From contig OZ024936.1 in the NCBI GenBank assembly GCA_964017235.1, forward strand, positions 12,624,496 through 12,688,495: 64,000 bases of DNA, read 5' to 3'. A program made the translations under genes and the position numbers. How positions within the stretch are numbered: position 1 is the stretch's first letter; each line of letters starts with the position of its first letter. Origin of the DNA: Sabellastarte sp. h YS-2021. Lineage: Eukaryota > Annelida > Polychaeta > Sabellida > Sabellidae. This document shows positions 1 to 35,503 of this stretch, in pieces. Under the pieces are notes generated by a model. It saw only the letters and a program-made list of their open reading frames with translations, did no database searches and was not told the DNA's origin.

Positions 1-395
1 GTAGATGCCTTACCATCGAGTACGCCAATTTTGGTCGTTCCGAGGGACACCAATTTTTTTCCACCAATGGATAGACTGGTCCAGTCTGAGTCTATACAAT
101 ATAACAGGGTAGGGTCTAAAGACCTTAATTTCGTAGATATGAGCAGAAACAGTATTTCCCATTGATTTTAAATGGGGATTTTGTCGTACATGTGTAGATG
201 CCTTACCATCGAGTACGCCAATTTTGGTCGTTCCGAGGGACACCAATTTTTTTCCACCAATTGATAGAGTGGTCCAGTCTGAGTCTATACAATATAACAG
301 GGTAGGGTCTAAAGACCTTAATTTCGTAGATATGAGCAAAAACAGTATTTCCCATTGATTTTAAATGGGGATTTCGTCGTACATGTGTAGATGCC

Positions 396-781
396 TTACC
401 ATCGAGTACGCCAATTTTGGTCGTTCCGAGGGACACCAATTTTTTTCCACCAATGGATAGACTGGTCCAGTCTGAGTCTATACAATATAACAGGGTAGGG
501 TCTAAAGACCTTAATTTCGTAGATATGAGCAGAAACAGTATTTCCCATTGATTTTAAATGGGGATTTTGTCGTACATGTGTAGATGCCTTACCATCGAGT
601 ACGCCAATTTTGGTCGTTCCGAGGGACACCAATTTTTTTCCACCAATTGATAGAGTGGTCCAGTCTCAGTCTATACAATATAACAGGGTAGGGTCTAAAG
701 ACCTTAATTTCGTAGATATGAGCAAAAACAGTATTTCCCATTGATTTTAAATGGGGATTTTGTCGTACATGTGTAGATGCC
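396..781 (+). repeat. B-C dimer unit (386 bp)
   Basis: Two linked monomer types in fixed order. B (396-588) has GATAGACTGG and ends in the TTTTGTCG form of the short box. C (589-781) has TTGATAGAGTGG and GAGCAAAAAC. The same pairing recurs at 10, 4457, 4843, 13592, 17082, 19221, 22912, 27375, 28541, 30672, 31637, 34355, 38054, 41190, 47245, 54281 and 61542, so it behaves as a dimeric sub-repeat inside larger HORs. C states also occur with E starts. Confidence 0.88.
459..473. repeat. Perfect 15-bp dyad in B-type units
   Basis: AGACTGG-T-CCAGTCT is a perfect inverted repeat with 7-bp arms around one base. In most units the fourth base is G (AGAGTGG), leaving one mismatch, so the single G/C variant switches this dyad between perfect and imperfect. 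It lies at unit positions 64-78. Confidence 0.9.
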
Positions 782-1175
782 TTACCATCGAGTACGCCAA
801 TTTTGGTCGTTCCGAGGGACACCAATTTTATTCCACCAATTGATAGAGTGGTCCAGTCTGAGTCTATACAATATAACAGGGTAGGGTCTAAAGACCTTAA
901 TTTCGTAGATATGAGCAAAAACAGTATTTCCCATTGATTTTAAATGGGGATTTTGCCATGCATATACACTAGTACAGGTGCCTTACCATCGAGTACGCCA
1001 ATTTTGGTCGTTCCGAGGGACACCAATTTTTTTCCACCAATGGATAGAGTGGTCCAGTCTGAGTCTATACAATATAACAGGGTAGGGTCTAAAGACCTTA
1101 ATTTCGTAGATATGAGCAGAAACAGTATTTCCCATTGATTTTAAATGGGGATTTCGTCATACATGTGTAGATGCC

Positions 1176-1368
1176 GTACGATCGAGTACGCCAATTTTGG
1201 TCATTCCGAGGGACACCAATTTTTTTCCACCAATGGATAGAGTGGTCCAGTCTGAGTCTATACAATATAACAGGGTAGGGTCTAAAGACCTTAATTTCGT
1301 AGATATGAGCAGAAACAGTATTTCCCATTGATTTTAAATGGGGATTTCGTCGTACATGTGTAGATGCC
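1176..1368 (+). repeat. Type D monomer (CGTCATAC box, GTACGATCG start)
   Basis: The unit starts GTACGATCGAG instead of TTACCATCGAG, which creates a CGATCG palindrome. It follows a CGTCATAC box. Many D units also carry GGTCATTCC for GGTCGTTCC (1176, 2141, 2913, 3878, 5623, 14372, 32417 and others), while 1755, 3492, 6202, 7955, 8936, 12812 and 15916 keep GGTCGTTCC. D units are frequent in the left third and usually follow a long-junction unit or a B unit. Confidence 0.92.
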
Positions 1369-1471
1369 TTACCATCGAGTACGCCAATTTTGGTCGTTCC
1401 GAGGGACACCAATTTTTTTCCACCAATGGATAGAGTGGTCCAGTCTGAGTCTATACAATATAACAGGGTAG

Positions 1472-1483
1472 GGTCTAAAGACC
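1472..1483. repeat. 12-bp dyad GGTCT-AA-AGACC (exemplar)
   Basis: A perfect inverted repeat with 5-bp arms and a 2-base centre at unit positions 104-115. It is preserved in nearly every unit. I saw breaks only in rare units, for example near 7294 (AAAAACC), near 7870 (TCTCAAG) and near 43258 (GACTTTA). Confidence 0.88.
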
Positions 1484-1516
1484 TTAATTTCGTAGATATG
1501 AGCAGAAACAGTATTT

Positions 1517-1535
1517 CCCATTGATTTTAAATGGG
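1517..1535. repeat. CCCATT...AATGGG hairpin (exemplar)
   Basis: Six-base-pair inverted repeat with a 7-base loop at unit positions 149-167, extendable by a wobble and an A-T pair. It sits immediately upstream of the variable box. The loop variant TTTAAA (around 45843, 48971, 52099, 55813, 57196, 58572, 61105) leaves the stem intact. AAATAGGG before nine long boxes weakens it by one pair. Confidence 0.85.
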
Positions 1536-1536
1536 G

Positions 1537-1558
1537 ATTTCGTCGTACATGTGTAGAT
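1537..1558 (+). repeat. 22-bp short-form variable box (exemplar)
   Basis: This is the segment between GGGG and GCC at the end of 193-bp units. The common form reads ATTTCGTCGTAC then ATGTGTAGAT. Recurrent variants are a T for the first C (TTTTGTCG, usually between B and C units), CGTCATAC (before D and GGAG units), and CGTTGTAC (eight units). Single cases include TTTCATCG near 41556 and TTTTGTCATAC near 60538. Around this box the array shows most of its type-defining variation. Confidence 0.9.
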
Positions 1559-4500
1559 GCCTTACCATCGAGTACGCCAATTTTGGTCGTTCCGAGGGAC
1601 ACCAATTTTTTTCCACCAATGGATAGACTGGTCCAGTCTGAGTCTATACAATATAACAGGGTAGGGTCTAAAGACCTTAATTTCGTAGATATGAGCAGAA
1701 ACAGTATTTCCCATTGATTTTAAATGGGGATTTCGTCATACATGTGTAGATGCCGTACGATCGAGTACGCCAATTTTGGTCGTTCCGAGGGACACCAATT
1801 TTTTTCCACCAATGGATAGAGTGGTCCAGTCTGAGTCTATACAATATAACAGGGTAGGGTCTAAAGACCTTAATTTCGTAGATATGAGCAGAAACAGTAT
1901 TTCCCATTGATTTTAAATGGGGATTTCGTCGTACATGTGTAGATGCCTTACCATCGAGTACGCCAATTTTGGTCGTTCCGAGGGACACCAATTTTTTTCC
2001 ACCAATGGATAGAGTGGTCCAGTCTGAGTCTATACAATATAACAGGGTAGGGTCTAAAGACCTTAATTTCGTAGATATGAGCAGAAACAGTATTTCCCAT
2101 TGATTTTAAATGGGGATTTCGTCATACATGTGTAGATGCCGTACGATCGAGTACGCCAATTTTGGTCATTCCGAGGGACACCAATTTTTTTCCACCAATG
2201 GATAGAGTGGTCCAGTCTGAGTCTATACAATATAACAGGGTAGGGTCTAAAGACCTTAATTTCGTAGATATGAGCAGAAACAGTATTTCCCATTGATTTT
2301 AAATGGGGATTTCGTCGTACATGTGTAGATGCCTTACCATCGAGTACGCCAATTTTGGTCGTTCCGAGGGACACCAATTTTTTTCCACCAATGGATAGAG
2401 TGGTCCAGTCTGAGTCTATACAATATAACAGGGTAGGGTCTAAAGACCTTAATTTCGTAGATATGAGCAGAAACAGTATTTCCCATTGATTTTAAATGGG
2501 GATTTCGTCGTACATGTGTAGATGCCTTACCATCGAGTACGCCAATTTTGGTCGTTCCGAGGGACACCAATTTTTTTCCACCAATGGATAGAGTGGTCCA
2601 GTCTGAGTCTATACAATATAACAGGGTAGGGTCTAAAGACCTTAATTTCGTAGATATGAGCAGAAACAGTATTTCCCATTGATTTTAAATGGGGATTTCG
2701 TCGTACATGTGTAGATGCCTTACCATCGAGTACGCCAATTTTGGTCGTTCCGAGGGACACCAATTTTTTTCCACCAATGGATAGAGTGGTCCAGTCTGAG
2801 TCTATACAATATAACAGGGTAGGGTCTAAAGACCTTAATTTCGTAGATATGAGCAGAAACAGTATTTCCCATTGATTTTAAATGGGGATTTCGTCATACA
2901 TGTGTAGATGCCGTACGATCGAGTACGCCAATTTTGGTCATTCCGAGGGACACCAATTTTTTTCCACCAATGGATAGAGTGGTCCAGTCTGAGTCTATAC
3001 AATATAACAGGGTAGGGTCTAAAGACCTTAATTTCGTAGATATGAGCAGAAACAGTATTTCCCATTGATTTTAAATGGGGATTTCGTCGTACATGTGTAG
3101 ATGCCTTACCATCGAGTACGCCAATTTTGGTCGTTCCGAGGGACACCAATTTTTTTCCACCAATGGATAGAGTGGTCCAGTCTGAGTCTATACAATATAA
3201 CAGGGTAGGGTCTAAAGACCTTAATTTCGTAGATATGAGCAGAAACAGTATTTCCCATTGATTTTAAATGGGGATTTCGTCGTACATGTGTAGATGCCTT
3301 ACCATCGAGTACGCCAATTTTGGTCGTTCCGAGGGACACCAATTTTTTTCCACCAATGGATAGACTGGTCCAGTCTGAGTCTATACAATATAACAGGGTA
3401 GGGTCTAAAGACCTTAATTTCGTAGATATGAGCAGAAACAGTATTTCCCATTGATTTTAAATGGGGATTTCGTCATACATGTGTAGATGCCGTACGATCG
3501 AGTACGCCAATTTTGGTCGTTCCGAGGGACACCAATTTTTTTCCACCAATGGATAGAGTGGTCCAGTCTGAGTCTATACAATATAACAGGGTAGGGTCTA
3601 AAGACCTTAATTTCGTAGATATGAGCAGAAACAGTATTTCCCATTGATTTTAAATGGGGATTTCGTCGTACATGTGTAGATGCCTTACCATCGAGTACGC
3701 CAATTTTGGTCGTTCCGAGGGACACCAATTTTTTTCCACCAATGGATAGAGTGGTCCAGTCTGAGTCTATACAATATAACAGGGTAGGGTCTAAAGACCT
3801 TAATTTCGTAGATATGAGCAGAAACAGTATTTCCCATTGATTTTAAATGGGGATTTCGTCATACATGTGTAGATGCCGTACGATCGAGTACGCCAATTTT
3901 GGTCATTCCGAGGGACACCAATTTTTTTCCACCAATGGATAGAGTGGTCCAGTCTGAGTCTATACAATATAACAGGGTAGGGTCTAAAGACCTTAATTTC
4001 GTAGATATGAGCAGAAACAGTATTTCCCATTGATTTTAAATGGGGATTTCGTCGTACATGTGTAGATGCCTTACCATCGAGTACGCCAATTTTGGTCGTT
4101 CCGAGGGACACCAATTTTTTTCCACCAATGGATAGAGTGGTCCAGTCTGAGTCTATACAATATAACAGGGTAGGGTCTAAAGACCTTAATTTCGTAGATA
4201 TGAGCAGAAACAGTATTTCCCATTGATTTTAAATGGGGATTTCGTCGTACATGTGTAGATGCCTTACCATCGAGTACGCCAATTTTGGTCGTTCCGAGGG
4301 ACACCAATTTTTTTCCACCAATGGATAGAGTGGTCCAGTCTGAGTCTATACAATATAACAGGGTAGGGTCTAAAGACCTTAATTTCGTAGATATGAGCAG
4401 AAACAGTATTTCCCATTGATTTTAAATGGGGATTTCGTCGTACATGTGTAGATGCCTTACCATCGAGTACGCCAATTTTGGTCGTTCCGAGGGACACCAA

Positions 4501-6788
4501 TTTTTTTCCACCAATGGATAGACTGGTCCAGTCTGAGTCTATACAATATAACAGGGTAGGGTCTAAAGACCTTAATTTCGTAGATATGAGCAGAAACAGT
4601 ATTTCCCATTGATTTTAAATGGGGATTTTGTCGTACATGTGTAGATGCCTTACCATCGAGTACGCCAATTTTGGTCGTTCCGAGGGACACCAATTTTTTT
4701 CCACCAATTGATAGAGTGTTCCAGTCTGAGTCTATACAATATAACAGGGTAGGGTCTAAAGACCTTAATTTCGTAGATATGAGCAAAAACAGTATTTCCC
4801 ATTGATTTTAAATGGGGATTTCGTCGTACATGTGTAGATGCCTTACCATCGAGTACGCCAATTTTGGTCGTTCCGAGGGACACCAATTTTTTTCCACCAA
4901 TGGATAGACTGGTCCAGTCTGAGTCTATACAATATAACAGGGTAGGGTCTAAAGACCTTAATTTCGTAGATATGAGCAGAAACAGTATTTCCCATTGATT
5001 TTAAATGGGGATTTTGTCGTACATGTGTAGATGCCTTACCATCGAGTACGCCAATTTTGGTCGTTCCGAGGGACACCAATTTTTTTCCACCAATTGATAG
5101 AGTGGTCCAGTCTGAGTCTATACAATATAACAGGGTAGGGTCTAAAGACCTTAATTTCGTAGATATGAGCAAAAACAGTATTTCCCATTGATTTTAAATG
5201 GGGATTTTGTCGTACATGTGTAGATGCCTTACCATCGAGTACGCCAATTTTGGTCGTTCCGAGGGACACCAATTTTTTTCCACCAATTGATAGAGTGGTC
5301 CAGTCTGAGTCTATACAATATAACAGGGTAGGGTCTAAAGACCTTAATTTCGTAGATATGAGCAAAAACAGTATTTCCCATTGATTTTAAATGGGGATTT
5401 TGCCATGCATATACACTAGTACAGGTGCCTTACCATCGAGTACGCCAATTTTGGTCGTTCCGAGGGACACCAATTTTTTTCCACCAATGGATAGAGTGGT
5501 CCAGTCTGAGTCTATACAATATAACAGGGTAGGGTCTAAAGACCTTAATTTCGTAGATATGAGCAGAAACAGTATTTCCCATTGATTTTAAATGGGGATT
5601 TCGTCATACATGTGTAGATGCCGTACGATCGAGTACGCCAATTTTGGTCATTCCGAGGGACACCAATTTTTTTCCACCAATGGATAGAGTGGTCCAGTCT
5701 GAGTCTATACAATATAACAGGGTAGGGTCTAAAGACCTTAATTTCGTAGATATGAGCAGAAACAGTATTTCCCATTGATTTTAAATGGGGATTTCGTCGT
5801 ACATGTGTAGATGCCTTACCATCGAGTACGCCAATTTTGGTCGTTCCGAGGGACACCAATTTTTTTCCACCAATGGATAGAGTGGTCCAGTCTGAGTCTA
5901 TACAATATAACAGGGTAGGGTCTAAAGACCTTAATTTCGTAGATATGAGCAGAAACAGTATTTCCCATTGATTTTAAATGGGGATTTCGTCGTACATGTG
6001 TAGATGCCTTACCATCGAGTACGCCAATTTTGGTCGTTCCGAGGGACACCAATTTTTTTCCACCAATGGATAGACTGGTCCAGTCTGAGTCTATACAATA
6101 TAACAGGGTAGGGTCTAAAGACCTTAATTTCGTAGATATGAGCAGAAGCAGTATTTCCCATTGATTTTAAATGGGGATTTCGTCATACATGTGTAGATGC
6201 CGTACGATCGAGTACGCCAATTTTGGTCGTTCCGAGGGACACCAATTTTTTTCCACCAATGGATAGAGTGGTCCAGTCTGAGTCTATACAATATAACAGG
6301 GTAGGGTCTAAAGACCTTAATTTCGTAGATATGAGCAGAAACAGTATTTCCCATTGATTTTAAATGGGGATTTCGTCGTACATGTGTAGATGCCTTACCA
6401 TCGAGTACGCCAATTTTGGTCGTTCCGAGGGACACCAATTTTTTTCCACCAATGGATAGAGTGGTCCAGTCTGAGTCTATACAATATAACAGGGTAGGGT
6501 CTAAAGACCTTAATTTCGTAGATATGAGCAGAAACAGTATTTCCCATTGATTTTAAATGGGGATTTTGCCATGCATATACACTAGTACAGGTGCCTTACC
6601 ATCGAGTACGCCAATTTTGGTCGTTCCGAGGGACACCAATTTTTTTCCACCAATGGATAGAGTGGTCCAGTCTGAGTCTATACAATATAACAGGGTAGGG
6701 TCTAAAGACCTTAATTTCGTAGATATGAGCAGAAACAGTATTTCCCATTGATTTTAAATGGGGATTTCGTCGTACATGTGTAGATGCC

Positions 6789-6989
6789 TTACCATCGAGT
6801 ACGCCAATTTTGGTCGTTCCGAGGGACACCAATTTTTTTCCACCAATGGATAGAGTGGTCCAGTCTGAGTCTATACAATATAACAGGGTAGGGTCTAAAG
6901 ACCTTAATTTCGTAGATATGAGCAGAAACAGTATTTCCCATTGATTTTAAATGGGGATTTTGCCATGCATATACACTAGTACAGGTGCC
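6789..6989 (+). repeat. Reference long monomer (201 bp)
   Basis: Identical in its first 168 bases to the standard unit, but it ends with the 30-bp box at 6957-6986 instead of the 22-bp box, giving 201 bp. There are 72 such junctions. Starts of the units that follow them, by region: 983, 5430, 6596, 6990, 8349, 8743 (first 10 kb); 10681, 11847, 13206, 14179, 16310, 17669, 18835, 19808; 21167, 22333, 23499, 25823, 26796, 27962, 29128; 32224, 33969, 34942, 35336, 35537, 36124, 38641, 39035, 39236, 39823; 16 between 40024 and 49794; 19 between 50960 and 59982; and 61148, 61349, 62129, 62523, 62724, 63311. Its length is a multiple of three, unlike 193. Confidence 0.97.
6957..6986 (+). repeat. 30-bp long-form variable box (exemplar)
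   Basis: It replaces the 22-bp box in all 201-bp units. It contains the palindromes ATGCAT and ACTAGT. A hand alignment to the short box places an 8-base insertion (ATACACTA) after GCCATGCAT; the other 18 aligned bases then show 7 differences, all transitions. The same form recurs 72 times with almost no change, so it is a stable alternative state. The exact edges of the insertion are ambiguous. Confidence 0.9.
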
Positions 6990-9514
6990 TTACCATCGAG
7001 TACGCCAATTTTGGTCGTTCCGAGGGACACCAATTTTTTTCCACCAATGGATAGAGTGGTCCAGTCTGAGTCTATACAATATAACAGGGTAGGGTCTAAA
7101 GACCTTAATTTCGTAGATATGAGCAGAAACAGTATTTCCCATTGATTTTAAATGGGGATTTCGTCATACATGTGTAGATGCCGTACGATCTAGTACGCCA
7201 ATTTTGGTCGTTCCGAGGGACACCAATTTTTTTCCACCAATGGATAGAGGGGTCCAGTCTGAGTCTATACAATATAACAGGGTAGGGTCTAAAAACCTTA
7301 ATTTCGTAGATATGAGCAGAAACAGTATTTCCCATTGATTTTAAATGGGGATTTCGTCATACATGTGTAGATGCCTTACCATCGAGTACGCCAATTTTGG
7401 TCGTTCCGAGGGACACCAATTTTTTTCCACCAATGGATAGAGTGGTCCAGTCTGAGTCTATACAATATAACAGGGTAGGGTCTAAAGACCTTAATTTCGT
7501 AGATATGAGCAGAAACAGTATTTCCCATTGATTTTAAATGGGGATTTCGTCGTACATGTGTAGATGCCTTACCATCGAGTACGCCAATTTTGGTCGTTCC
7601 GAGGGACACCAATTTTTTTCCACCAATGGATAGAGTGGTCCAGTCTGAGTCTATACAATATAACAGGGTAGGGTCTAAAGACCTTAATTTCGTAGATATG
7701 AGCAGAAACAGTATTTCCCATTGATTTTAAATGGGGATTTCGTCGTACATGTGTAGATGCCTTACCATCGAGTACGCCAATTTTGGTCGTTCCGAGGGAC
7801 ACCAATTTTTTTCCACCAATGGATAGACTGGTCCAGTCTGAGTCTATACAATATAACAGGGTAGGGTCTCAAGACCTTAATTTCGTAGATATGAGCAGAA
7901 ACAGTATTTCCCATTGATTTTAAATGGGGATTTCGTCATACATGTGTAGATGCCGTACGATCGAGTACGCCAATTTTGGTCGTTCCGAGGGACACCAATT
8001 TTTTTCCACCAATGGATAGAGTGGTCCAGTCTGAGTCTATACAATATAACAGGGTAGGGTCTAAAGACCTTAATTTCGTAGATATGAGCAGAAACAGTAT
8101 TTCCCATTGATTTTAAATGGGGATTTCGTCGTACATGTGTAGATGCCTTACCATCGAGTACGCCAATTTTGGTCGTTCCGAGGGACACCAATTTTTTTCC
8201 ACCAATGGATAGAGTGGTCCAGTCTGAGTCTATACAATATAACAGGGTAGGGTCTAAAGACCTTAATTTCGTAGATATGAGCAGAAACAGTATTTCCCAT
8301 TGATTTTAAATGGGGATTTTGCCATGCATATACACTAGTACAGGTGCCTTACCATCGAGTACGCCAATTTTGGTCGTTCCGAGGGACACCAATTTTTTTC
8401 CACCAATGGATAGAGTGGTCCAGTCTGAGTCTATACAATATAACAGGGTAGGGTCTAAAGACCTTAATTTCGTAGATATGAGCAGAAACAGTATTTCCCA
8501 TTGATTTTAAATGGGGATTTCGTCGTACATGTGTAGATGCCTTACCATCGAGTACGCCAATTTTGGTCGTTCCGAGGGACACCAATTCTTTTCCACCAAT
8601 GGATAGAGTGGTCCAGTCTGAGTCTATACAATATAACAGGGTAGGGTCTAAAGACCTTAATTTCGTAGATATGAGCAGAAACAGTATTTCCCATTGATTT
8701 TAAATGGGGATTTTGCCATGCATATACACTAGTACAGGTGCCTTACCATCGAGTACGCCAATTTTGGTCGTTCCGAGGGACACCAATTTTTTTCCACCAA
8801 TGGATAGAGTGGTCCAGTCTGAGTCTATACAATATAACAGGGTAGGGTCTAAAGACCTTAATTTCGTAGATATGAGCAGAAACAGTATTTCCCATTGATT
8901 TTAAATGGGGATTTCGTCATACATGTGTAGATGCCGTACGATCGAGTACGCCAATTTTGGTCGTTCCGAGGGACACCAATTTTTTTCCACCAATGGATAG
9001 AGTGGTCCAGTCTGAGTCTATACAATATAACAGGGTAGGGTCTAAAGACCTTAATTTCGTAGATATGAGCAGAAACAGTATTTCCCATTGATTTTAAATG
9101 GGGATTTCGTCATACATGTGTAGATGCCTTACCATCGAGTACGCCAATTTTGGTCGTTCCGAGGGACACCAATTTTTTTCCACCAATGGATAGAGTGGTC
9201 CAGTCTGAGTCTATACAATATAACAGGGTAGGGTCTAAAGACCTTAATTTCGTAGATATGAGCAGAAACAGTATTTCCCATTGATTTTAAATGGGGATTT
9301 CGTCGTACATGTGTAGATGCCTTACCATCGAGTACGCCAATTTTGGTCGTTCCGAGGGACACCAATTTTTTTCCACCAATGGATAGAGTGGTCCAGTCTG
9401 AGTCTATACAATATAACAGGGTAGGGTCTAAAGACCTTAATTTCGTAGATATGAGCAGAAACAGTATTTCCCATTGATTTTAAATGGGGATTTCGTCATA
9501 CATGTGTAGATGCC

Positions 9515-12039
9515 TTACCATGGAGTACGCCAATTTTGGTCGTTCCGAGGGACACCAATTTTTTTCCACCAATGGATAGAGTGGTCCAGTCTGAGTCTAT
9601 ACAATATAACAGGGTAGGGTCTAAAGACCTTAATTTCGTAGATATGAGCAGAAACAGTATTTCCCATTGATTTTAAATGGGGATTTCGTCGTACATGTGT
9701 AGATGCCTTACCATCGAGTACGCCAATTTTGGTCGTTCCGAGGGACACCAATTTTTTTCCACCAATGGATAGAGTGGTCCAGTCTGAGTCTATACAATAT
9801 AACAGGGTAGGGTCTAAAGACCTTAATTTCGTAGATATGAGCAGAAACAGTATTTCCCATTGATTTTAAATGGGGATTTCGTCATACATGTGTAGATGCC
9901 GTACGATCGAGTACGCCAATTTTGGTCATTCCGAGGGACACCAATTTTTTTCCACCAATGGATAGAGTGGTCCAGTCTGAGTCTATACAATATAACAGGG
10001 TAGGGTCTAAAGACCTTAATTTCGTAGATATGAGCAGAAACAGTATTTCCCATTGATTTTAAATGGGGATTTCGTCGTACATGTGTAGATGCCTTACCAT
10101 CGAGTACGCCAATTTTGGTCGTTCCGAGGGACACCAATTTTTTTCCACCAATGGATAGAGTGGTCCAGTCTGAGTCTATACAATATAACAGGGTAGGGTC
10201 TAAAGACCTTAATTTCGTAGATATGAGCAGAAACAGTATTTCCCATTGATTTTAAATGGGGATTTCGTCGTACATGTGTAGATGCCTTACCATCGAGTAC
10301 GCCAATTTTGGTCGTTCCGAGGGACACCAATTTTTTTCCACCAATGGAGAGACTGGTCCAGTCTGAGTCTATACAATATAACAGGGTAGGGTCTAAAGAC
10401 CTTAATTTCGTAGATATGAGCAGAAACAGTATTTCCCATTGATTTTAAATGGGGATTTCGTCATACATGTGTAGATGCCGTACGATCGAGTACGCCAATT
10501 TTGGTCGTTCCGAGGGACACCAATTTTTTTCCACCAATGGATAGAGTGGTCCAGTCTGAGTCTATACAATATAACAGGGTAGGGTCTAAAGACCTTAATT
10601 TCGTAGATATGAGCAGAAACAGTATTTCCCATTGATTTTAAATGGGGATTTTGCCATGCATATACACTAGTACAGGTGCCTTACCATCGAGTACGCCAAT
10701 TTTGGTCGTTCCGAGGGACACCAATTTTTTTCCACCAATGGATAGAGTGGTCCAGTCTGAGTCTATACAATATAACAGGGTAGGGTCTAAAGACCTTAAT
10801 TTCGTAGATATGAGCAGAAACAGTATTTCCCATTGATTTTAAATGGGGATTTCGTCATACATGTGTAGATGCCGTACGATCGAGTACGCCAATTTTGGTC
10901 ATTCCGGGGGACACCAATTTTTTTCCACCAATGGATAGAGTGGTCCAGTCTGAGTCTATACAATATAACAGGGTAGGGTCTAAAGACCTTAATTTCGTAG
11001 ATATGAGCAGAAACAGTATTTCCCATTGATTTTAAATGGGGATTTCGTCGTACATGTGTAGATGCCTTACCATCGAGTACGCCAATTTTGGTCGTTCCGA
11101 GGGACACCAATTTTTTTCCACCAATGGATAGAGTGGTCCAGTCTGAGTCTATACAATATAACAGGGTAGGGTCTAAAGACCTTAATTTCGTAGATATGAG
11201 CAGAAACAGTATTTCCCATTGATTTTAAATGGGGATTTCGTCGTACATGTGTAGATGCCTTACCATCGAGTACGCCAATTTTGGTCGTTCCGAGGGACAC
11301 CAATTTTTTTCCACCAATGGAGAGACTGGTCCAGTCTGAGTCTATACAATATAACAGGGTAGGGTCTAAAGACCTTAATTTCGTAGATATGAGCAGAAAC
11401 AGTATTTCCCATTGATTTTAAATGGGGATTTCGTCATACATGTGTAGATGCCGTACGATCGAGTACGCCAATTTTGGTCGTTCCGAGGGACACCAATTTT
11501 TTTCCACCAATGGATAGACTGGTCCAGTCTGAGTCTATACAATATAACAGGGTAGCGTCTAAAGACCTTAATTTCGTAGATATGAGCAGAAACAGTATTT
11601 CCCATTGATTTTAAATGGGGATTTCGTCGTACATGTGTAGATGCCTTACCATCGAGTACGCCAATTTTGGTCGTTCCGAGGGACACCAATTTTTTTCCAC
11701 CAATGGATAGAGTGGTCCAGTCTGAGTCTATACAATATAACAGGGTAGGGTCTAAAGACCTTAATTTCGTAGATATGAGCAGAAACAGTATTTCCCATTG
11801 ATTTTAAATGGGGATTTTGCCATGCATATACACTAGTACAGGTGCCTTACCATCGAGTACGCCAATTTTGGTCGTTCCGAGGGACACCAATTTTTTTCCA
11901 CCAATGGATAGAGTGGTCCAGTCTGAGTCTATACAATATAACAGGGTAGGGTCTAAAGACCTTAATTTCGTAGATATGAGCAGAAACAGTATTTCCCATT
12001 GATTTTAAATGGGGATTTCGTCGTACATGTGTAGATGCC
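9515..12039. repeat. Domain 3: 973-bp offset repeats
   Basis: Units 10094, 10287 and D10480 recur as 11067, 11260 and D11453, offset 973 bp (four short plus one long interval). The pair is confirmed by the shared rare change GGAGAGACTGG at 10349 and 11322. D9901 and D10874 repeat at the same offset. Long junctions precede 10681 and 11847. Private changes are near 10906 and 11557. Confidence 0.82.
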
Positions 12040-13398
12040 TTACCATCGAGTACGCCAATTTTGGTCGTTCCGAGGGACACCAATTTTTTTCCACCAATTG
12101 ATAGAGTGGTCCAGTCTGAGTCTATACAATATAACAGGGTAGGGTCTAAAGACCTTAATTTCGTAGATATGAGCAAAAACAGTATTTCCCATTGATTTTA
12201 AATGGGGATTTCGTCGTACATGTGTAGATGCCTTACCATCGAGTATGCCAATTTTGGTCGTTCCGAGGGACACCAATTTTTTTCCACCAATGGATAGACT
12301 GGTCCAGTCTGAGTCTATACAATATAACAGGGTAGGGTCTAAAGACCTTAATTTCGTAGATATGAGCAGAAACAGTATTTCCCATTGATTTTAAATGGGG
12401 ATTTTGTCGTACATGTGTAGATGCCTTACCATCGAGTACGCCAATTTTGGTCGTTCCGAGGGACACCAATTTTTTTCCACCAATTGATAGAGTGGTCCAG
12501 TCTGAGTCTATACAATATAACAGGGTAGGGTCTAAAGACCTTAATTTCGTAGATATGAGCAGAAACAGTATTTCCCATTGATTTTAAATGGGGATTTCGT
12601 CGTACATGTGTAGATGCCTTACCATCGAGTACGCCAATTTTGGTCGTTCCGAGGGATACCAATTTTTTTCCACCAATGGATAGACTGGTCCAGTCTGAGT
12701 CTATACAATATAACAGGGTAGGGTCTAAAGACCTTAATTTCGTAGATATGAGCAGAAACAGTATTTCCCATTGATTTTAAATGGGGATTTCGTCATACAT
12801 GTGTAGATGCCGTACGATCGAGTACGCCAATTTTGGTCGTTCCGAGGGACACCAATTTTTTTCCACCAATGGATAGAGTGGTCCAGTCTGAGTCTATACA
12901 ATATAACAGGGTAGGGTCTAAAGACCTTAATTTCGTAGATATGAGCAGAAACAGTATTTCCCATTGATTTTAAATGGGGATTTCGTCGTACATGTGTAGA
13001 TGCCTTACCATCGAGTACGCCAATTTTGGTCGTTCCGAGGGACACCAATTTTTTTCCACCAATGGATAGAGTGGTCCAGTCTGAGTCTATACAATATAAC
13101 AGGGTAGGGTCTAAAGACCTTAATTTCGTAGATATGAGCAGAAACAGTATTTCCCATTGATTTTAAATGGGGATTTTGCCATGCATATACACTAGTACAG
13201 GTGCCTTACCATCGAGTACGCCAATTTTGGTCGTTCCGAGGGACACCAATTTTTTTCCACCAATGGATAGAGTGGTCCAGTCTGAGTCTATACAATATAA
13301 CAGGGTAGGGTCTAAAGACCTTAATTTCGTAGATATGAGCAGAAACAGTATTTCCCATTGATTTTAAATGGGGATTTCGTCGTACATGTGTAGATGCC

Positions 13399-13591
13399 GT
13401 ACCATCGAGTACGCCAATTTTGGTCGTTCCGAGGGACACCAATTTTTTTCCACCAATTGATAGAGTGGTCCAGTCTGAGTCTATACAATATAACAGGGTA
13501 GGGTCTAAAGACCTTAATTTCGTAGATATGAGCAAAAACAGTATTTCCCATTGATTTTAAATGGGGATTTCGTCGTACATGTGTAGATGCC
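13399..13591 (+). repeat. Type E monomer (GTACCATCG start)
   Basis: The unit starts GTACCATCG, intermediate between the standard TTACCATCG and the D start GTACGATCG, and carries C-type internal states (TTGATAG, most with GCAAAAAC). Copies start at 13399, 16889, 19028, 20580, 22719, 24271, 25043, 27182, 28348 and 31444. None is seen outside 13-32 kb, so it marks that domain. Confidence 0.9.
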
Positions 13592-14950
13592 TTACCATCG
13601 AGTACGCCAATTTTGGTCGTTCCGAGGGACACCAATTTTTTTCCACCAATGGATAGACTGGTCCAGTCTGAGTCTATACAATATAACAGGGTAGGGTCTA
13701 AAGACCTTAATTTCGTAGATATGAGCAGAAACAGTATTTCCCATTGATTTTAAATGGGGATTTTGTCGTACATGTGTAGATGCCTTACCATCCAGTACGC
13801 CAATTTTGGTCGTTCCGAGGGACACCAATTTTTTTCCACCAATTGATAGAGTGGTCCAGTCTGAGTCTATACAATATAACAGGGTAGGGTCTAAAGACCT
13901 TAATTTCGTAGATATGAGCAAAAACAGTATTTCCCATTGATTTTAAATGGGGATTTTGTCGTACATGTGTAGATGCCTTACCATCGAGTACGCCAATTTT
14001 GGTCGTTCCGAGGGACACCAATTTTTTTCCACCAATTGATAGAGTGGTCCAGTCTGAGTCTATACAATATAACAGGGTAGGGTCTAAAGACCTTAATTTC
14101 GTAGATATGAGCAAAAACAGTATTTCCCATTGATTTTAAATGGGGATTTTGCCATGCATATACACTAGTACAGGTGCCTTACCATCGAGTACGCCAATTT
14201 TGGTCGTTCCGAGGGACACCAATTTTTTTCCACCAATGGATAGAGTGGTCCAGTCTGAGTCTATACAATATAACAGGGTAGGGTCTAAAGACCTTAATTT
14301 CGTAGATATGAGCAGAAACAGTATTTCCCATTGATTTTAAATGGGGATTTCGTCATACATGTGTAGATGCCGTACGATCGAGTACGCCAATTTTGGTCAT
14401 TCCGAGGGACACCAATTTTTTTCCACCAATGGATAGAGTGGTCCAGTCTGAGTCTATACAATATAACAGGGTAGGGTCTAAAGACCTTAATTTCGTAGAT
14501 ATGAGCAGAAACAGTATTTCCCATTGATTTTAAATGGGGATTTCGTCGTACATGTGTAGATGCCTTACCATCGAGTACGCCAATTTTGGTCGTTCCGAGG
14601 GACACCAATTTTTTTCCACCAATGGATAGAGTGGTCCAGTCTGAGTCTATACAATATAACAGGGTAGGGTCTAAAGACCTTAATTTCGTAGATATGAGCA
14701 GAAACAGTATTTCCTATTGATTTTAAATGGGGATTTCGTCGTACATGTGTAGATGCCTTACCATCGAGTACGCCAATTTTGGTCGTTCCGAGGGACACCA
14801 ATTTTTTTCCACCAATGGATAGACTGGTCCAGTCTGAGTCTATACAATATAACAGGGTAGGGTCTAAAGACCTTAATTTCGTAGATATGAGCAGAAACAG
14901 TATTTCCCATTGATTTTAAATGGGGATTTCGTCATACATGTGTAGATGCC

Positions 14951-15143
14951 GTACGATCGAGGACGCCAATTTTGGTCGTTCCGAGGGACACCAATTTTTT
15001 TCCACCAATGGATAGAGTGGTCCAGTCTGAGTCTATACAATATAACAGGGTAGGGTCTAAAGACCTTAATTTCGTAGATATGAGCAGAAACAGTATTTCC
15101 CATTGATTTTAAATGGGGATTTCGTCGTACATGTGTAGATGCC
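14951..15143 (+). repeat. Type D' monomer (GATCGAGGACG)
   Basis: A D unit with a further change, GAGTACG to GAGGACG. Copies start at 14951, 18441, 21939 and 29900. A recombinant form with a GTCGTAC box and GGTCATTCC is at 33575 and 37475. It is a useful marker of the 3.5-kb duplications in the 14-30 kb region and of the 32-40 kb HOR pair. Confidence 0.92.
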
Positions 15144-17668
15144 TTACCATCGAGTACGCCAATTTTGGTCGTTCCGAGGGACACCAATTTTTTTCCACCA
15201 ATTGATAGAGTGGTCCAGTCTGAGTCTATACAATATAACAGGGTAGGGTCTAAAGACCTTAATTTCGTAGATATGAGCAAAAACAGTATTTCCCATTGAT
15301 TTTAAATGGGGATTTCGTCGTACATGTGTAGATGCCTTACCATCGAGTATGCCAATTTTGGTCGTTCCGAGGGACACCAATTTTTTTCCACCAATGGATA
15401 GACTGGTCCAGTCTGAGTCTATACAATATAACAGGGTAGGGTCTAAAGACCTTAATTTCGTAGATATGAGCAGAAACAGTATTTCCCATTGATTTTAAAT
15501 GGGGATTTTGTCGTACATGTGTAGATGCCTTACCATCGAGTACGCCAATTTTGGTCGTTCCGAGGGACACCAATTTTTTTCCACCAATTGATAGAGTGGT
15601 CCAGTCTGAGTCTATACAATATAACAGGGTAGGGTCTAAAGACCTTAATTTCGTAGATATGAGCAGAAACAGTATTTCCCATTGATTTTAAATGGGGATT
15701 TCGTCGTACATGTGTAGATGCCTTACCATCGAGTACGCCAATTTTGGTCGTTCCGAGGGACACCAATTTTTTTCCACCAATGGATAGACTGGTCCAGTCT
15801 GAGTCTATACAATATAACAGGGTAGGGTCTAAAGACCTTAATTTCGTAGATATGAGCAGAAACAGTATTTCCCATTGATTTTAAATGGGGATTTCGTCAT
15901 ACATGTGTAGATGCCGTACGATCGAGTACGCCAATTTTGGTCGTTCCGAGGGACACCAATTTTTTTCCACCAATGGATAGAGTGGTCCAGTCTGAGTCTA
16001 TACAATATAACAGGGTAGGGTCTAAAGACCTTAATTTCGTAGATATGACCAAAAACAGTATTTCCCATTGATTTTAAATGGGGATTTCGTCGTACATGTG
16101 TAGATGCCTTACCATCGAGTACGCCAATTTTGGTCGTTCCGAGGGACACCAATTTTTTTCCACCAATGGATAGAGTGGTCCAGTCTGAGTCTATACAATA
16201 TAACAGGGTAGGGTCTAAAGACCTTAATTTCGTAGATATGAGCAGAAACAGTATTTCCCATTGATTTTAAATGGGGATTTTGCCATGCATATACACTAGT
16301 ACAGGTGCCTTACCATCGAGTACGCCAATTTTGGTCGTTCCGAGGGACACCAATTTTTTTCCACCAATGGATAGAGTGGTCCAGTCTGAGTCTATACAAT
16401 ATAACAGGGTAGGGTCTAAAGACCTTAATTTCGTAGATATGAGCAGAAACAGTATTTCCCATTGATTTTAAATGGGGATTTTGTCGTACATGTGTAGATG
16501 CCTTACCATCGAGTACGCCAATTTTGGTCGTTCCGAGGGACACCAATTTTTTTCCACCAATGGATAGAGTGGTCCAGTCTGAGTCTATACAATATAACAG
16601 GGTAGGGTCTAAAGACCTTAATTTCGTAGATATGAGCAGAAACAGTATTTCCCATTGATTTTAAATGGGGATTTCGTCGTACATGTGTAGATGCCTTACC
16701 ATCGAGTACGCCAATTTTGGTCGTTCCGAGGGACACCAATTTTTTTCCACCAATGGATAGAGTGGTCCAGTCTGAGTCTATACAATATAACAGGGTAGGG
16801 TCTAAAGACCTTAATTTCGTAGATATGAGCAGAAACAGTATTTCCCATTGATTTTAAATGGGGATTTTGTCGTACATGTGTAGATGCCGTACCATCGAGT
16901 ACGCCAATTTTGGTCGTTCCGAGGGACACCAATTTTTTTCCACCAATTGATAGAGTGGTCCAGTCTGAGTCTATACAATATAACAGGGTAGGGTCTAAAG
17001 ACCTTAATTTCGTAGATATGAGCAAAAACAGTATTTCCCATTGATTTTAAATGGGGATTTCGTCGTACATGTGTAGATGCCTTACCATCGAGTACGCCAA
17101 TTTTGGTCGTTCCGAGGGACACCAATTTTTTTCCACCAATGGATAGACTGGTCCAGTCTGAGTCTATACAATATAACAGGGTAGGGTCTAAAGACCTTAA
17201 TTTCGTAGATATGAGCAGAAACAGTATTTCCCATTGATTTTAAATGGGGATTTTGTCGTACATGTGTAGATGCCTTACCATCCAGTACGCCAATTTTGGT
17301 CGTTCCGAGGGACACCAATTTTTTTCCACCAATTGATAGAGTGGTCCAGTCTGAGTCTATACAATATAACAGGGTAGGGTCTAAAGACCTTAATTTCGTA
17401 GATATGAGCAAAAACAGTATTTCCCATTGATTTTAAATGGGGATTTTGTCGTACATGTGTAGATGCCTTACCATCGAGTACGCCAATTTTGGTCGTTCCG
17501 AGGGACACCAATTTTTTTCCACCAATTGATAGAGTGGTCCAGTCTGAGTCTATACAATATAACAGGGTAGGGTCTAAAGACCTTAATTTCGTAGATATGA
17601 GCAAAAACAGTATTTCCCATTGATTTTAAATGGGGATTTTGCCATGCATATACACTAGTACAGGTGCC

Positions 17669-20600
17669 TTACCATCGAGTACGCCAATTTTGGTCGTTCC
17701 GAGGGACACCAATTTTTTTCCACCAATGGATAGAGTGGTCCAGTCTGAGTCTATACAATATAACAGGGTAGGGTCTAAAGACCTTAATTTCGTAGATATG
17801 AGCAGAAACAGTATTTCCCATTGATTTTAAATGGGGATTTCGTCATACATGTGTAGATGCCGTACGATCGAGTACGCCAATTTTGGTCATTCCGAGGGAC
17901 ACCAATTTTTTTCCACCAATGGATAGAGTGGTCCAGTCTGAGTCTATACAATATAACAGGGTAGGGTCTAAAGACCTTAATTTCGTAGATATGAGCAGAA
18001 ACAGTATTTCCCATTGATTTTAAATGGGGATTTCGTCGTACATGTGTAGATGCCTTACCATCGAGTACGCCAATTTTGGTCGTTCCGAGGGACACCAATT
18101 TTTTTCCACCAATGGATAGAGTGGTCCAGTCTGAGTCTATACAATATAACAGGGTAGGGTCTAAAGACCTTAATTTCGTAGATATGAGCAGAAACAGTAT
18201 TTCCCATTGATTTTAAATGGGGATTTCGTCGTACATGTGTAGATGCCTTACCATCGAGTACGCCAATTTTGGTCGTTCCGAGGGACACCAATTTTTTTCC
18301 ACCAATGGATAGACTGGTCCAGTCTGAGTCTATACAATATAACAGGGTAGGGTCTAAAGACCTTAATTTCGTAGATATGAGCAGAAACAGTATTTCCCAT
18401 TGATTTTAAATGGGGATTTCGTCATACATGTGTAGATGCCGTACGATCGAGGACGCCAATTTTGGTCGTTCCGAGGGACACCAATTTTTTTCCACCAATG
18501 GATAGAGTGGTCCAGTCTGAGTCTATACAATATAACAGGGTAGGGTCTAAAGACCTTAATTTCGTAGATATGAGCAGAAACAGTATTTCCCATTGATTTT
18601 AAATGGGGATTTCGTCGTACATGTGTAGATGCCTTACCATCGAGTACGCCAATTTTGGTCGTTCCGAGGGACACCAATTTTTTTCCACCAATGGATAGAG
18701 TGGTCCAGTCTGAGTCTATACAATATAACAGGGTAGGGTCTAAAGACCTTAATTTCGTAGATATGAGCAGAAACAGTATTTCCCATTGATTTTAAATGGG
18801 GATTTTGCCATGCATATACACTAGTACAGGTGCCTTACCATCGAGTACGCCAATTTTGGTCGTTCCGAGGGACACCAATTTTTTTCCACCAATGGATAGA
18901 GTGGTCCAGTCTGAGTCTATACAATATAACAGGGTAGGGTCTAAAGACCTTAATTTCGTAGATATGAGCAGAAACAGTATTTCCCATTGATTTTAAATGG
19001 GGATTTTGTCGTACATGTGTAGATGCCGTACCATCGAGTACGCCAATTTTGGTCGTTCCGAGGGACACCAATTTTTTTCCACCAATTGATAGAGTGGTCC
19101 AGTCTGAGTCTATACAATATAACAGGGTAGGGTCTAAAGACCTTAATTTCGTAGATATGAGCAAAAACAGTATTTCCCATTGATTTTAAATGGGGATTTC
19201 GTCGTACATGTGTAGATGCCTTACCATCGAGTACGCCAATTTTGGTCGTTCCGAGGGACACCAATTTTTTTCCACCAATGGATAGACTGGTCCAGTCTGA
19301 GTCTATACAATATAACAGGGTAGGGTCTAAAGACCTTAATTTCGTAGATATGAGCAGAAACAGTATTTCCCATTGATTTTAAATGGGGATTTTGTCGTAC
19401 ATGTGTAGATGCCTTACCATCCAGTACGCCAATTTTGGTCGTTCCGAGGGACACCAATTTTTTTCCACCAATTGATAGAGTGGTCCAGTCTGAGTCTATA
19501 CAATATAACAGGGTAGGGTCTAAAGACCTTAATTTCGTAGATATGAGCAAAAACAGTATTTCCCATTGATTTTAAATGGGGATTTTGTCGTACATGTGTA
19601 GATGCCTTACCATCGAGTACGCCAATTTTGGTCGTTCCGAGGGACACCAATTTTTTTCCACCAATTGATAGAGTGGTCCAGTCTGAGTCTATACAATATA
19701 ACAGGGTAGGGTCTAAAGACCTTAATTTCGTAGATATGAGCAAAAACAGTATTTCCCATTGATTTTAAATGGGGATTTTGCCATGCATATACACTAGTAC
19801 AGGTGCCTTACCATCGAGTACGCCAATTTTGGTCGTTCCGAGGGACACCAATTTTTTTCCACCAATGGATAGAGTGGTCCAGTCTGAGTCTATACAATAT
19901 AACAGGGTAGGGTCTAAAGACCTTAATTTCGTAGATATGAGCAGAAACAGTATTTCACATTGATTTTAAATGGGGATTTCGTCATACATGTGTAGATGCC
20001 GTACGATCGAGTACGCCAATTTTGGTCATTCCGAGGGACACCAATTTTTTTCCACCAATGGATAGAGTGGTCCAGTCTGAGTCTATACAATATAACAGGG
20101 TAGGGTCTAAAGACCTTAATTTCGTAGATATGAGCAGAAACAGTATTTCCCATTGATTTTAAATGGGGATTTCGTCGTACATGTGTAGATGCCTTACCAT
20201 CGAGTACGCCAATTTTGGTCGTTCCGAGGGACACCAATTTTTTTCCACCAATGGATAGAGTGGTCCAGTCTGAGTCTATACAATATAACAGGGTAGGGTC
20301 TAAAGACCTTAATTTCGTAGATATGAGCAGAAACAGTATTTCCCATTGATTTTAAATGGGGATTTCGTCGTACATGTGTAGATGCCTTACCATCGAGTAC
20401 GCCAATTTTGGTCGTTCCGAGGGACACCAATTTTTTTCCACCAATGGATAGAGTGGTCCAGTCTGAGTCTATACAATATAACAGGGTAGGGTCTAAAGAC
20501 CTTAATTTCGTAGATATGAGCAGAAACAGTATTTCCCATTGATTTTAAATGGGGATTTTGTCGTACATGTGTAGATGCCGTACCATCGAGTACGCCAATT

Positions 20601-23600
20601 TTGGTCGTTCCGAGGGACACCAATTTTTTTCCACCAATTGATAGAGTGGTCCAGTCTGAGTCTATACAATATAACAGGGTAGGGTCTAAAGACCTTAATT
20701 TCGTAGATATGAGCAGAAACAGTATTTCCCATTGATTTTAAATGGGGATTTCGTCGTACATGTGTAGATGCCTTACCATCGAGTACGCCAATTTTGGTCG
20801 TTCCGAGGGACACCAATTTTTTTCCACCAATTGATAGAGTGGTCCAGTCTGAGTCTATACAATATAACAGGGTAGGGTCTAAAGACCTTAATTTCATAGA
20901 TATGAGCAAAAACAGTATTTCCCATTGATTTTAAATGGGGATTTTGTCGTACATGTGTAGATGCCTTACCATCGAGTACGCCAATTTTGGTCGTTCCGAG
21001 GGACACCAATTTTTTTCCACCAATTGATAGAGTGGTCCAGTCTGAGTCTATACAATATAACAGGGTAGGGTCTAAAGACCTTAATTTCGTAGATATGAGC
21101 AAAAACAGTATTTCCCATTGATTTTAAATGGGGATTTTGCCATGCATATACACTAGTACAGGTGCCTTACCATCGAGTACGCCAATTTTGGTCGTTCCGA
21201 GGGACACCAATTTTTTTCCACCAATGGATAGAGTGGTCCAGTCTGAGTCTATACAATATAACAGGGTAGGGTCTAAAGACCTTAATTTCGTAGATATGAG
21301 CAGAAACAGTATTTCCCATTGATTTTAAATGGGGATTTCGTCATACATGTGTAGATGCCGTACGATCGAGTACGCCAATTTTGGTCATTCCGAGGGACAC
21401 CAATTTTTTTCCACCAATGGATAGAGTGGTCCAGTCTGAGTCTATACAATATAACAGGGTAGGGTCTAAAGACCTTAATTTCGTAGATATGAGCAGAAAC
21501 AGTATTTCCCATTGATTTTAAATGGGGATTTCGTCGTACATGTGTAGATGCCTTACCATCGAGTACGCCAATTTTGGTCGTTCCGAGGGACACCAATTTT
21601 TTTCCACCAATGGATAGAGTGGTCCAGTCTGAGTCTATACAATATAACAGGGTAGGGTCTAAAGACCTTAATTTCGTAGATATGAGCAGAAACAGTATTT
21701 CCCATTGATTTTAAATGGGGATTTCGTCGTACATGTGTAGATGCCTTACCATCGAGTACGCCAATTTTGGTCGTTCCGAGGGACACCAATTTTTTTCCAC
21801 CAATGGATAGACTGGTCCAGTCTGAGTCTATACAATATAACAGGGTAGGGTCTAAAGACCTTAATTTCGTAGATATGAGCAGAAACAGTATTTCCCATTG
21901 ATTTTAAATGGGGATTTCGTCATACATGTGTAGATGCCGTACGATCGAGGACGCCAATTTTGGTCGTTCCGAGGGACACCAATTTTTTTCCACCAATGGA
22001 TAGAGTGGTCCAGTCTGAGTCTATACAATATAACAGGGTAGGGTCTAAAGACCTTAATTTCGTAGATATGAGCAGAAACAGTATTTCCCATTGATTTTAA
22101 ATGGGGATTTCGTCGTACATGTGTAGATGCCTTACCATCGAGTACGCCAATTTTGGTCGTTCCGAGGGACACCAATTTTTTTCCACCAATGGATAGAGTG
22201 GTCCAGTCTGAGTCTATACAATATAACAGGGTAGGGTCTAAAGACCTTAATTTCGTAGATATGAGCAGAAACAGTATTTCCCATTGATTTTAAATGGGGA
22301 TTTTGCCATGCATATACACTAGTACAGGTGCCTTACCATCGAGTACGCCAATTTTGGTCGTTCCGAGGGACACCAATTTTTTTCCACCAATGGATAGAGT
22401 GGTCCAGTCTGAGTCTATACAATATAACAGGGTAGGGTCTAAAGACCTTAATTTCGTAGATATGAGCAGAAACAGTATTTCCCATTGATTTTAAATGGGG
22501 ATTTCGTCGTACATGTGTAGATGCCTTACCATCGAGTACGCCAATTTTGGTCGTTCCGAGGGACACCAATTTTTTTCCACCAATGGATAGAGTGGTCCAG
22601 TCTGAGTCTATACAATATAACAGGGTAGGGTCTAAAGACCTTAATTTCGTAGATATGAGCAGAAACAGTATTTCCCATTGATTTTAAATGGGGATTTTGT
22701 CGTACATGTGTAGATGCCGTACCATCGAGTACGCCAATTTTGGTCGTTCCGAGGGACACCAATTTTTTTCCACCAATTGATAGAGTGGTCCAGTCTGAGT
22801 CTATACAATATAACAGGGTAGGGTCTAAAGACCTTAATTTCGTAGATATGAGCAAAAACAGTATTTCCCATTGATTTTAAATGGGGATTTCGTCGTACAT
22901 GTGTAGATGCCTTACCATCGAGTACGCCAATTTTGGTCGTTCCGAGGGACACCAATTTTTTTCCACCAATGGATAGACTGGTCCAGTCTGAGTCTATACA
23001 ATATAACAGGGTAGGGTCTAAAGACCTTAATTTCGTAGATATGAGCAGAAACAGTATTTCCCATTGATTTTAAATGGGGATTTTGTCGTACATGTGTAGA
23101 TGCCTTACCATCCAGTACGCCAATTTTGGTCGTTCCGAGGGACACCAATTTTTTTCCACCAATTGATAGAGTGGTCCAGTCTGAGTCTATACAATATAAC
23201 AGGGTAGGGTCTAAAGACCTTAATTTCGTAGATATGAGCAAAAACAGTATTTCCCATTGATTTTAAATGGGGATTTTGTCGTACATGTGTAGATGCCTTA
23301 CCATCGAGTACGCCAATTTTGGTCGTTCCGAGGGACACCAATTTTTTTCCACCAATTGATAGAGTGGTCCAGTCTGAGTCTATACAATATAACAGGGTAG
23401 GGTCTAAAGACCTTAATTTCGTAGATATGAGCAAAAACAGTATTTCCCATTGATTTTAAATGGGGATTTTGCCATGCATATACACTAGTACAGGTGCCTT
23501 ACCATCGAGTACGCCAATTTTGGTCGTTCCGAGGGACACCAATTTTTTTCCACCAATGGATAGAGTGGTCCAGTCTGAGTCTATACAATATAACAGGGTA

Positions 23601-24438
23601 GGGTCTAAAGACCTTAATTTCGTAGATATGAGCAGAAACAGTATTTCACATTGATTTTAAATGGGGATTTCGTCATACATGTGTAGATGCCGTACGATCG
23701 AGTACGCCAATTTTGGTCATTCCGAGGGACACCAATTTTTTTCCACCAATGGATAGAGTGGTCCAGTCTGAGTCTATACAATATAACAGGGTAGGGTCTA
23801 AAGACCTTAATTTCGTAGATATGAGCAGAAACAGTATTTCCCATTGATTTTAAATGGGGATTTCGTCGTACATGTGTAGATGCCTTACCATCGAGTACGC
23901 CAATTTTGGTCGTTCCGAGGGACACCAATTTTTTTCCACCAATGGATAGAGTGGTCCAGTCTGAGTCTATACAATATAACAGGGTAGGGTCTAAAGACCT
24001 TAATTTCGTAGATATGAGCAGAAACAGTATTTCCCATTGATTTTAAATGGGGATTTCGTCGTACATGTGTAGATGCCTTACCATCGAGTACGCCAATTTT
24101 GGTCGTTCCGAGGGACACCAATTTTTTTCCACCAATGGATAGAGTGGTCCAGTCTGAGTCTATACAATATAACAGGGTAGGGTCTAAAGACCTTAATTTC
24201 GTAGATATGAGCAGAAACAGTATTTCCCATTGATTTTAAATGGGGATTTTGTCGTACATGTGTAGATGCCGTACCATCGAGTACGCCAATTTTGGTCGTT
24301 CCGAGGGACACCAATTTTTTTCCACCAATTGATAGAGTGGTCCAGTCTGAGTCTATACAATATAACAGGGTAGGGTCTAAAGACCTTAATTTCGTAGATA
24401 TGAGCAGAAACAGTATTTCCCATTGATTTTAAATGGGG
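17669..24438. repeat. Domain 5: 3,498/3,691-bp offset duplication
   Basis: Units L17669 to L18835 recur as L21167 to L22333 (offset 3,498 bp). From E19028 on, the offset becomes 3,691 bp because unit 22526 is extra. 19028-20747 then matches 22719-24438. A private TTTCACATTG (for TTTCCCATTG) near 19955 and 23646 is found only in these two places and confirms the duplication. Confidence 0.88.
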
Positions 24439-35335: not shown

Positions 35336-35503
35336 TTACCATCGAGTACGCCAATTTTGGTCGTTCCGAGGGACACCAATTTTTTTCCACCAATGGATAG
35401 AGTGGTCCAGTCTGAGTCTATACAATATAACAGGGTAGGGTCTAAAGACCTTAATTTCGTAGATATGAGCAGAAACAGTATTTCCCATTGATTTTAAATG
35501 GGG

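What the first reader, a model, noticed from the sequence alone, without database searches (positions are those of the whole stretch)
6957..6986. One variable box with two alternative forms in an otherwise constant monomer
All length variation and much of the type-defining divergence sits in or beside one segment per monomer. The 30-bp form differs from the 22-bp form by an 8-base insertion and 7 of 18 aligned bases, while the other 171 bp of the two classes are near-identical. Alpha satellite has a comparable design: at one monomer position an A box or a B box (CENP-B site) is present. By analogy the box could be a binding site with two states, with the rest kept uniform by conversion. No binding protein is known to me here.
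Basis: partly seen in the sequence, partly recalled or inferred. Interest (0 to 1): 0.72.

Follow-up and report, generated by a model that had tools for sequence, protein, structure and literature searches.

The report
Two-state box in a satellite repeat
A long run of repeated DNA is built from units that are alike except for one short segment, which comes with or without the same extra eight letters; related repeats on two other chromosome-sized pieces show the same switch, much like the two unit types of human centromere DNA, but no protein that reads it is known.

Summary
The window is one satellite of 193-bp (short box, S) and 201-bp (long box, L) monomers: 256 S and 72 L boxes of 328. Class consensuses are identical outside the box. 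In 922 monomers sampled over 2.1 Mb of the array there is still no fixed difference in the 171-bp remainder.

New: the two states are not private to this array. Diverged relatives on contigs C18 and C21 carry the same alternative. Across the three contigs, in the few monomers read, only two features define the type: an 8-bp insert, ATAMACTA, and one A/G site. On C14 and C18 the remainder groups by contig while the box groups by type; C21 is unresolved. So the two-state box probably predates the contig-specific subfamilies.

The layout closely matches the alpha-satellite A/B box, but it is not a CENP-B box. Protein binding and centromere identity are untested. Most likely it is an old dimorphism kept discrete by recombination dynamics; a selected binding or linker site remains open.

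The parts
1..64000 (+). Satellite array of 193-bp (short box) and 201-bp (long box) monomers; fills the window
   Evidence: TRF, one row 1-64000; 256 short and 72 long boxes of 328
6957..6986 (+). Long (30-bp) state of the box
   Evidence: Sequence; one of 72 long boxes
6967..6967 (+). G of the long state; A in the short forms of C14, C18 and C21
   Evidence: Type-diagnostic column 11 among nine box forms
6971..6978 (+). 8-bp module ATACACTA, the insert that separates the states on three contigs
   Evidence: Type-diagnostic columns 16-23
6987..7157 (+). 171-bp remainder (tail) of this long monomer
   Evidence: Class consensuses identical; no fixed difference in 922 monomers
7158..7179 (+). Short (22-bp) state of the box in the next monomer, variant with CGTCAT
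   Evidence: Sequence; one of 54 boxes of this variant in the window

Best explanation
The box is an old two-state segment of a nucleosome-length satellite: an 8-bp module (ATAMACTA) is present (201-bp monomer) or absent (193-bp monomer), with a linked A/G site 4 bp upstream. Shown here: both states coexist in arrays on three contigs with diverged tails; on C14 and C18 the tail is alike between states within a contig while the box is alike within a state between contigs. Inferred: the split of the two states predates the contig-specific subfamilies; unequal exchange or gene conversion later made the tails uniform within an array across both states, and blocks of several monomers were copied together. 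Inferred: the box stays discrete because it is only about a tenth of the monomer and heterologous, so most exchanges carry it over whole or leave it. I think both states persist mainly through these dynamics, with no or weak selection.
For: No fixed tail difference in 922 monomers; 177 S and 208 L of 919 share the exact consensus tail; S and L boxes are homologous beyond chance. Diverged edge monomers at C14 14.502 Mb carry one S-like and one L-like box. Relatives on C18 and C21 carry both states. Tail differences: 0 between C14 S and L consensuses, 4 and 6 between S and L on C18, 8-10 between C14 and C18; the C18 S and L tails form one group (support 90/90). S and L are interspersed on all three: 271 L of 595 monomers in 12 C14 loci and 72 of 327 in the window; 64 L-like boxes over 50.8 kb of C21; on C18, 37 L of 135 monomers inferred from spacing over 26 kb.
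Against: C18 rests on two complete S and one L monomer, C21 on three S and one L. C21 gives no support: its S-L tail distances, 10-16 of 171, are as large as those between contigs, and one C21 S tail groups with the C14 edge monomer. The support of 90/90 is below the tool's star level. Around the window exchange between states looks rare: six common S variants in 0 of 99 L and 21 shared variant alleles against 55.7 in permutations over 13 loci. Both states persisting in every array read could also mean selection.
Confidence: 0.58

Rival explanations
1. Selected binding site: one state, probably the long one with the core CATGCA(A)TATAMACTAGTACAG, is bound by a centromere or heterochromatin protein, and selection keeps bound and unbound monomers together, as has been argued for the A/B box of alpha satellite.
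For: Same layout as the alpha-satellite A/B box (PMC9549924, passages); both states present in all three arrays read; slight shortage of adjacent L monomers, 129 against 144.4 permuted, P 0.01.
Against: No binder known; not a CENP-B box; CENP-B dimerisation domain PF09026 gave no match, though the control rang nowhere so absence is not shown; spacing of L is irregular and the L share varies from 0.21 to 0.71 between sampled stretches; the slight shortage of L-L neighbours may come from block duplication.
Confidence: 0.22
2. Linker-length switch: the 8 bp (about three quarters of a helical turn) lie in linker DNA and change spacing and rotation between neighbouring nucleosomes; the mix of 193 and 201 bp tunes chromatin rather than protein binding.
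For: Monomers of nucleosomal length, differing almost only by the 8-bp module; the module, not the flanking letters, is what the contigs share.
Confidence: 0.08
3. Recurrent origin: the 8-bp stretch was gained or lost independently in each array, for instance by deletion in the long form.
For: A deletion of one block is a common event in arrays; other indels exist.
Against: The insert is the same on C14, C18 and C21 apart from one C/A and one extra A beside it, always at the same place, and an A/G site 4 bp away goes with it; by eye the deletion endpoints share no bases (inference).
Confidence: 0.08
4. Recent one-step swap on C14: a foreign or rearranged segment replaced the box in one monomer and spread, so the tails are identical simply because the split is young.
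For: 177 S and 208 L monomers carry the identical tail, and common S variants are private to S around the window.
Against: Same two states on C18, C21 and in diverged edge monomers; S and L boxes are similar beyond chance; L tail diversity, pi 0.0109, is not far below S, 0.0154.
Confidence: 0.04

Closest known systems
Alpha satellite A/B box (CENP-B box or presumed pJalpha site), primates
   Same: Nucleosome-length monomers in megabase arrays; two monomer types that differ mostly in one short box; chromosome-specific subfamilies; homogeneous interior and diverged edge (comparison text: PMC9549924, passages)
   Different: Box of 22 or 30 bp with a length change of 8 bp instead of a 17-bp exchange; no CENP-B motif; no binder known; monomer sequence and length differ; centromere role untested
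PcP190 satellite of hyloid frogs (conserved region plus hypervariable region)
   Same: About 190-bp monomers; types told apart only by one variable segment and found side by side in clones (PMC4877019, passages; PMC4201667, abstract, section 12 and passages)
   Different: There the variable segment is 60-91 bp with seven types in Pseudis and the rest resembles 5S rDNA; here two discrete states, and 5S similarity is not significant (P 0.16)
Satellites with alternating conserved and variable domains (Arabidopsis 178-bp, Meloidogyne)
   Same: Non-random variation along the monomer, suggested to relate to protein-binding sites (as cited in PMC4201667, passages)
   Different: [quoted passage not shown] here two discrete states shared across arrays

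Membership tests
Alpha satellite | 171-bp primate alpha monomer sequence | tested here: not met
   Monomers are 193 or 201 bp; no sequence comparison with alpha was run, its length is from the listing and from recall
Alpha satellite | CENP-B box NTTCGNNNNANNCGGGN in one monomer type (motif recalled) | tested here: not met
   Best 7 of 9 core bases in the C14 short box, reached by 35% of 2,000 Markov sequences; 5-6 of 9 in the C18 and C21 short forms, 5 in the long forms
Works like the A/B box | Two monomer types differing mostly in one short box, shared across chromosomes | tested here: met
   No fixed difference outside the box in 922 C14 monomers; same alternative on C18 and C21, few monomers read
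Works like the A/B box | A protein binds one of the states | not testable with these tools
   No binding data
Centromeric satellite | CENP-A chromatin / kinetochore position | not testable with these tools
   Arrays of about 2.5 Mb at 11.9-14.5 Mb of C14 (99.7 Mb) and around 8-9.8 Mb of C18 (94.9 Mb) fit, but there are no chromatin data
PcP190 | Conserved region similar to 5S rDNA | tested here: not met

The most novel reading that the evidence does not exclude
The box is an independently evolved counterpart of the alpha-satellite A/B box: a two-state binding or linker-length site kept polymorphic by selection within arrays on several chromosomes of a genome that is not known to be a primate's, with the 8-bp module as the switch.
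Probability: 0.22. Interest if true: 0.86.

Novelty: new variant of a known kind. Interest (0 to 1): 0.6.

Why it matters
Why alpha satellite keeps two monomer types that differ in one box is an old question, hard to judge from one lineage. A second, unrelated satellite with the same layout, in which the two states appear older than the chromosome-specific subfamilies and differ by one clean 8-bp module, gives an independent case. Binding, nucleosome phasing and persistence of both states in relatives can each be tested on it.

Tried and rejected
CENP-B box: rejected. 5S rDNA / PcP190 origin: not significant; Rfam, on 6501-8500 only, nothing. Hairpin difference between the states: S and L regions fold to the same -20.6 and the boxes alone to -1.3 and -1.2 kcal/mol with ViennaRNA defaults. 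Regular higher-order repeat: best self-match lags differ from locus to locus, so local block duplications rather than one period. Random foreign insert: rejected. Purine/pyrimidine constraint: the seven S-L differences on C14 are all transitions against about 1:1 in the tails, but the seven recurrent changes inside L boxes are all transversions, so I claim no structural constraint. Literature by sequence: 0 papers hold any of three monomer strings. A DNA search with the window itself gave nothing because common words are skipped. Organism: not identified; sampled flanks are CpG-poor (o/e 0.22-0.46); a mussel preprint, passages seen, settled nothing. A note written guesses 'vertebrate'; that is not established. 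A note says the long form is consistent with the C14 array alone; later calls (99, 105) show long-type boxes elsewhere. Never answered: long-box count on C18 (six tries), COI, RAG1, 18S, and a tail-only pattern.

Full report
What is there. The whole 64-kb window is one satellite array (TRF period 193, 328.6 copies). Each of the 328 boxes found is short (ATTTCGTCGTACATGTGTAGAT and point variants, 256 copies) or long (ATTTTGCCATGCATATACACTAGTACAGGT and one variant, 72 copies). The box given, 6957-6986, is a long one. All 327 complete monomers are 193 or 201 bp, and the class consensuses agree outside the box.

Extent. Ten-kb samples of C14 show the satellite from 12.2 to 14.3 Mb and not in the six samples at or below 11.81 Mb or the two at 16.0 and 20.0 Mb; both orientations meet near 12.40 Mb. 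The left end at 11.8626 Mb abuts a run of N. On the right the array meets another repeat at about 14.387 Mb, resumes on the other strand after about 14.484 Mb, where there is again a run of N, and ends at 14.502 Mb. This sums to about 2.54 Mb. The C14-type short box occurs 11,900 times genome-wide (up to 3 mismatches), the C14-type long box 5,097 times (up to 2 mismatches); the reversed-pattern controls gave 0. Together that is about 17,000, more than the roughly 13,000 monomers that fit in 2.54 Mb, so some copies probably lie outside the stretch that I bounded; I did not place them.

Box against rest. I cut 922 monomers from the window and 12 loci; 579 are S and 343 L. For one search, three L monomers with a 24-bp deletion were dropped, leaving 919. 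Outside the box there is no fixed difference; mean dxy is 0.0138 against pi of 0.0154 in S and 0.0109 in L. 177 S and 208 L monomers share the exact consensus tail, and none of the 919 boxes holds part of the insert. The box is more variable than the tail within each class too (pi 0.0277 against 0.0154 in S, 0.0206 against 0.0109 in L). S and L are nevertheless homologous: 11 of 18 positions match and all seven differences are transitions, beyond shuffled and Markov controls.

Exchange between states. If conversion were frequent now, common tail variants should be in both states. Around the window (428 monomers) six variants found in 45-71 of 329 S are in 0 of 99 L, while several pairs of S variants occur in all four combinations, as recombination (or repeated mutation) among S monomers would give. 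Over 13 loci, counting unique haplotypes, 21 variant alleles are shared against 55.7 in permutations. Sharing does occur, for example in L027, L028 and L036. When the tail is assigned to the box on its right instead, the link with S remains for variants near the left box but is gone for those at tail positions 84 and 161 (13 of 64 and 13 of 59 next to an L box, against an L share of 0.23). Copies are not independent, because blocks are duplicated, so I read this as 'rare', not as a formal test.

The same two states elsewhere. The outermost monomers at 14.502 Mb are diverged (9 of 156 tail positions) and carry one S-like and one L-like box. A search with them found related arrays on C18, C21, C11 and C37 at 79-90% identity (40 of 1,581 candidates were scored). 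Letters read from C18 (two complete S monomers and one L) and C21 (three S and one L) show the same alternative; C11 and C37 were not read. In an alignment of nine box forms (five S, four L; the S form of the edge, truncated by a deletion, was left out, though it too has the A and no insert), only column 11 (A in S, G in L) and the eight inserted columns separate the states on all three contigs. On C18, S and L differ in the box only by the 8-bp insert and that A/G site. On C21, 64 L-like boxes lie over 50.8 kb, about a quarter of monomers if the mean length is 195.5 bp (that search, up to 3 mismatches, had one hit with the reversed control). On C18, the spacing of perfect short boxes implies 37 L among 135 monomers over 26 kb (L inferred from length, not read). 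C18-type short boxes number 9,402 genome-wide (up to 2 mismatches).

Different histories of box and tail. Tail differences of 171 are 0 between S and L consensuses on C14, 4 and 6 between the two S and the one L on C18, and 8-10 between C14 and C18. There tails group by contig (C18: support 90/90, below the tool's star level) and boxes by state. C21 is inconclusive: its S-L distances, 10-16, are as large as those between contigs, and one C21 S tail groups with the C14 edge monomer. The plain reading is that the two-state box is older than the C14 and C18 subfamilies and that the rest was later made uniform inside each array across both states. The C18 short box carries the long-type right half, GTACAGTT, where C14 and C21 short boxes have GTGTAGAT, so the box itself may have been split by exchange once.

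How it most likely works. I favour an old dimorphism carried as a unit through block duplication and rare exchange, with no or weak selection. A selected binding site, as in alpha satellite, and a linker-length switch of 8 bp remain open; both states being present in all three arrays read is a hint in their favour, not proof. The CENP-B reading fails. Centromere identity and protein binding could not be tested.

Known kinds. In alpha satellite, A and B consensus monomers differ mostly in a 17-bp box that binds CENP-B or, presumably, pJalpha (PMC9549924, passages). PcP190 of frogs has types told apart by a variable segment and interspersed in clones (PMC4877019, passages). The present satellite resembles these in layout and belongs to neither by the tests made. 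Searches for this satellite in print by length (listing only) and by sequence (no paper) did not find it, on a similar two-state design, found no paper, and I saw listings, apart from the papers named above and PMC13015404 (passages).

Noticed in passing
L028 (C14:12400000-12409999): The satellite changes orientation inside this stretch: 36 matches on the minus and 16 on the plus strand.
   Followed up: no
L041, L063-L068, L076-L082, L088 (C14 near 11.862 Mb and 14.387-14.484 Mb): A different repeat, with stretches such as GCCATCTGAGGCTGTATTTTCGC, adjoins the array at both ends and beside two runs of N; its period was not measured.
   Followed up: partly
window 1-64000: The share of long-box monomers rises along the window, 0.12, 0.13, 0.27, 0.35 by quarters, and ranges from 0.21 to 0.71 between sampled stretches.
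   Followed up: partly
window 1-64000: The satellite is CpG-rich for its genome: o/e 0.87 (S) and 0.60 (L) against 0.22-0.46 in eight samples of C14 outside the array; the short box holds two CpG, the long none.
   Followed up: no
L002 (C2:164646125-164647807): One open frame of 1,346 residues holds four CENP-B_N (PF04218) matches; 61 such matches were scored in the genome.
   Followed up: no
L090 (C18:8503700-8504299): The C18 short box has the right half of the long type, a possible trace of exchange inside the box.
   Followed up: partly
L055 (C14:14502000-14505999): Just beyond the array edge lie repeated palindromic motifs such as CAACATGTTGAG.
   Followed up: no
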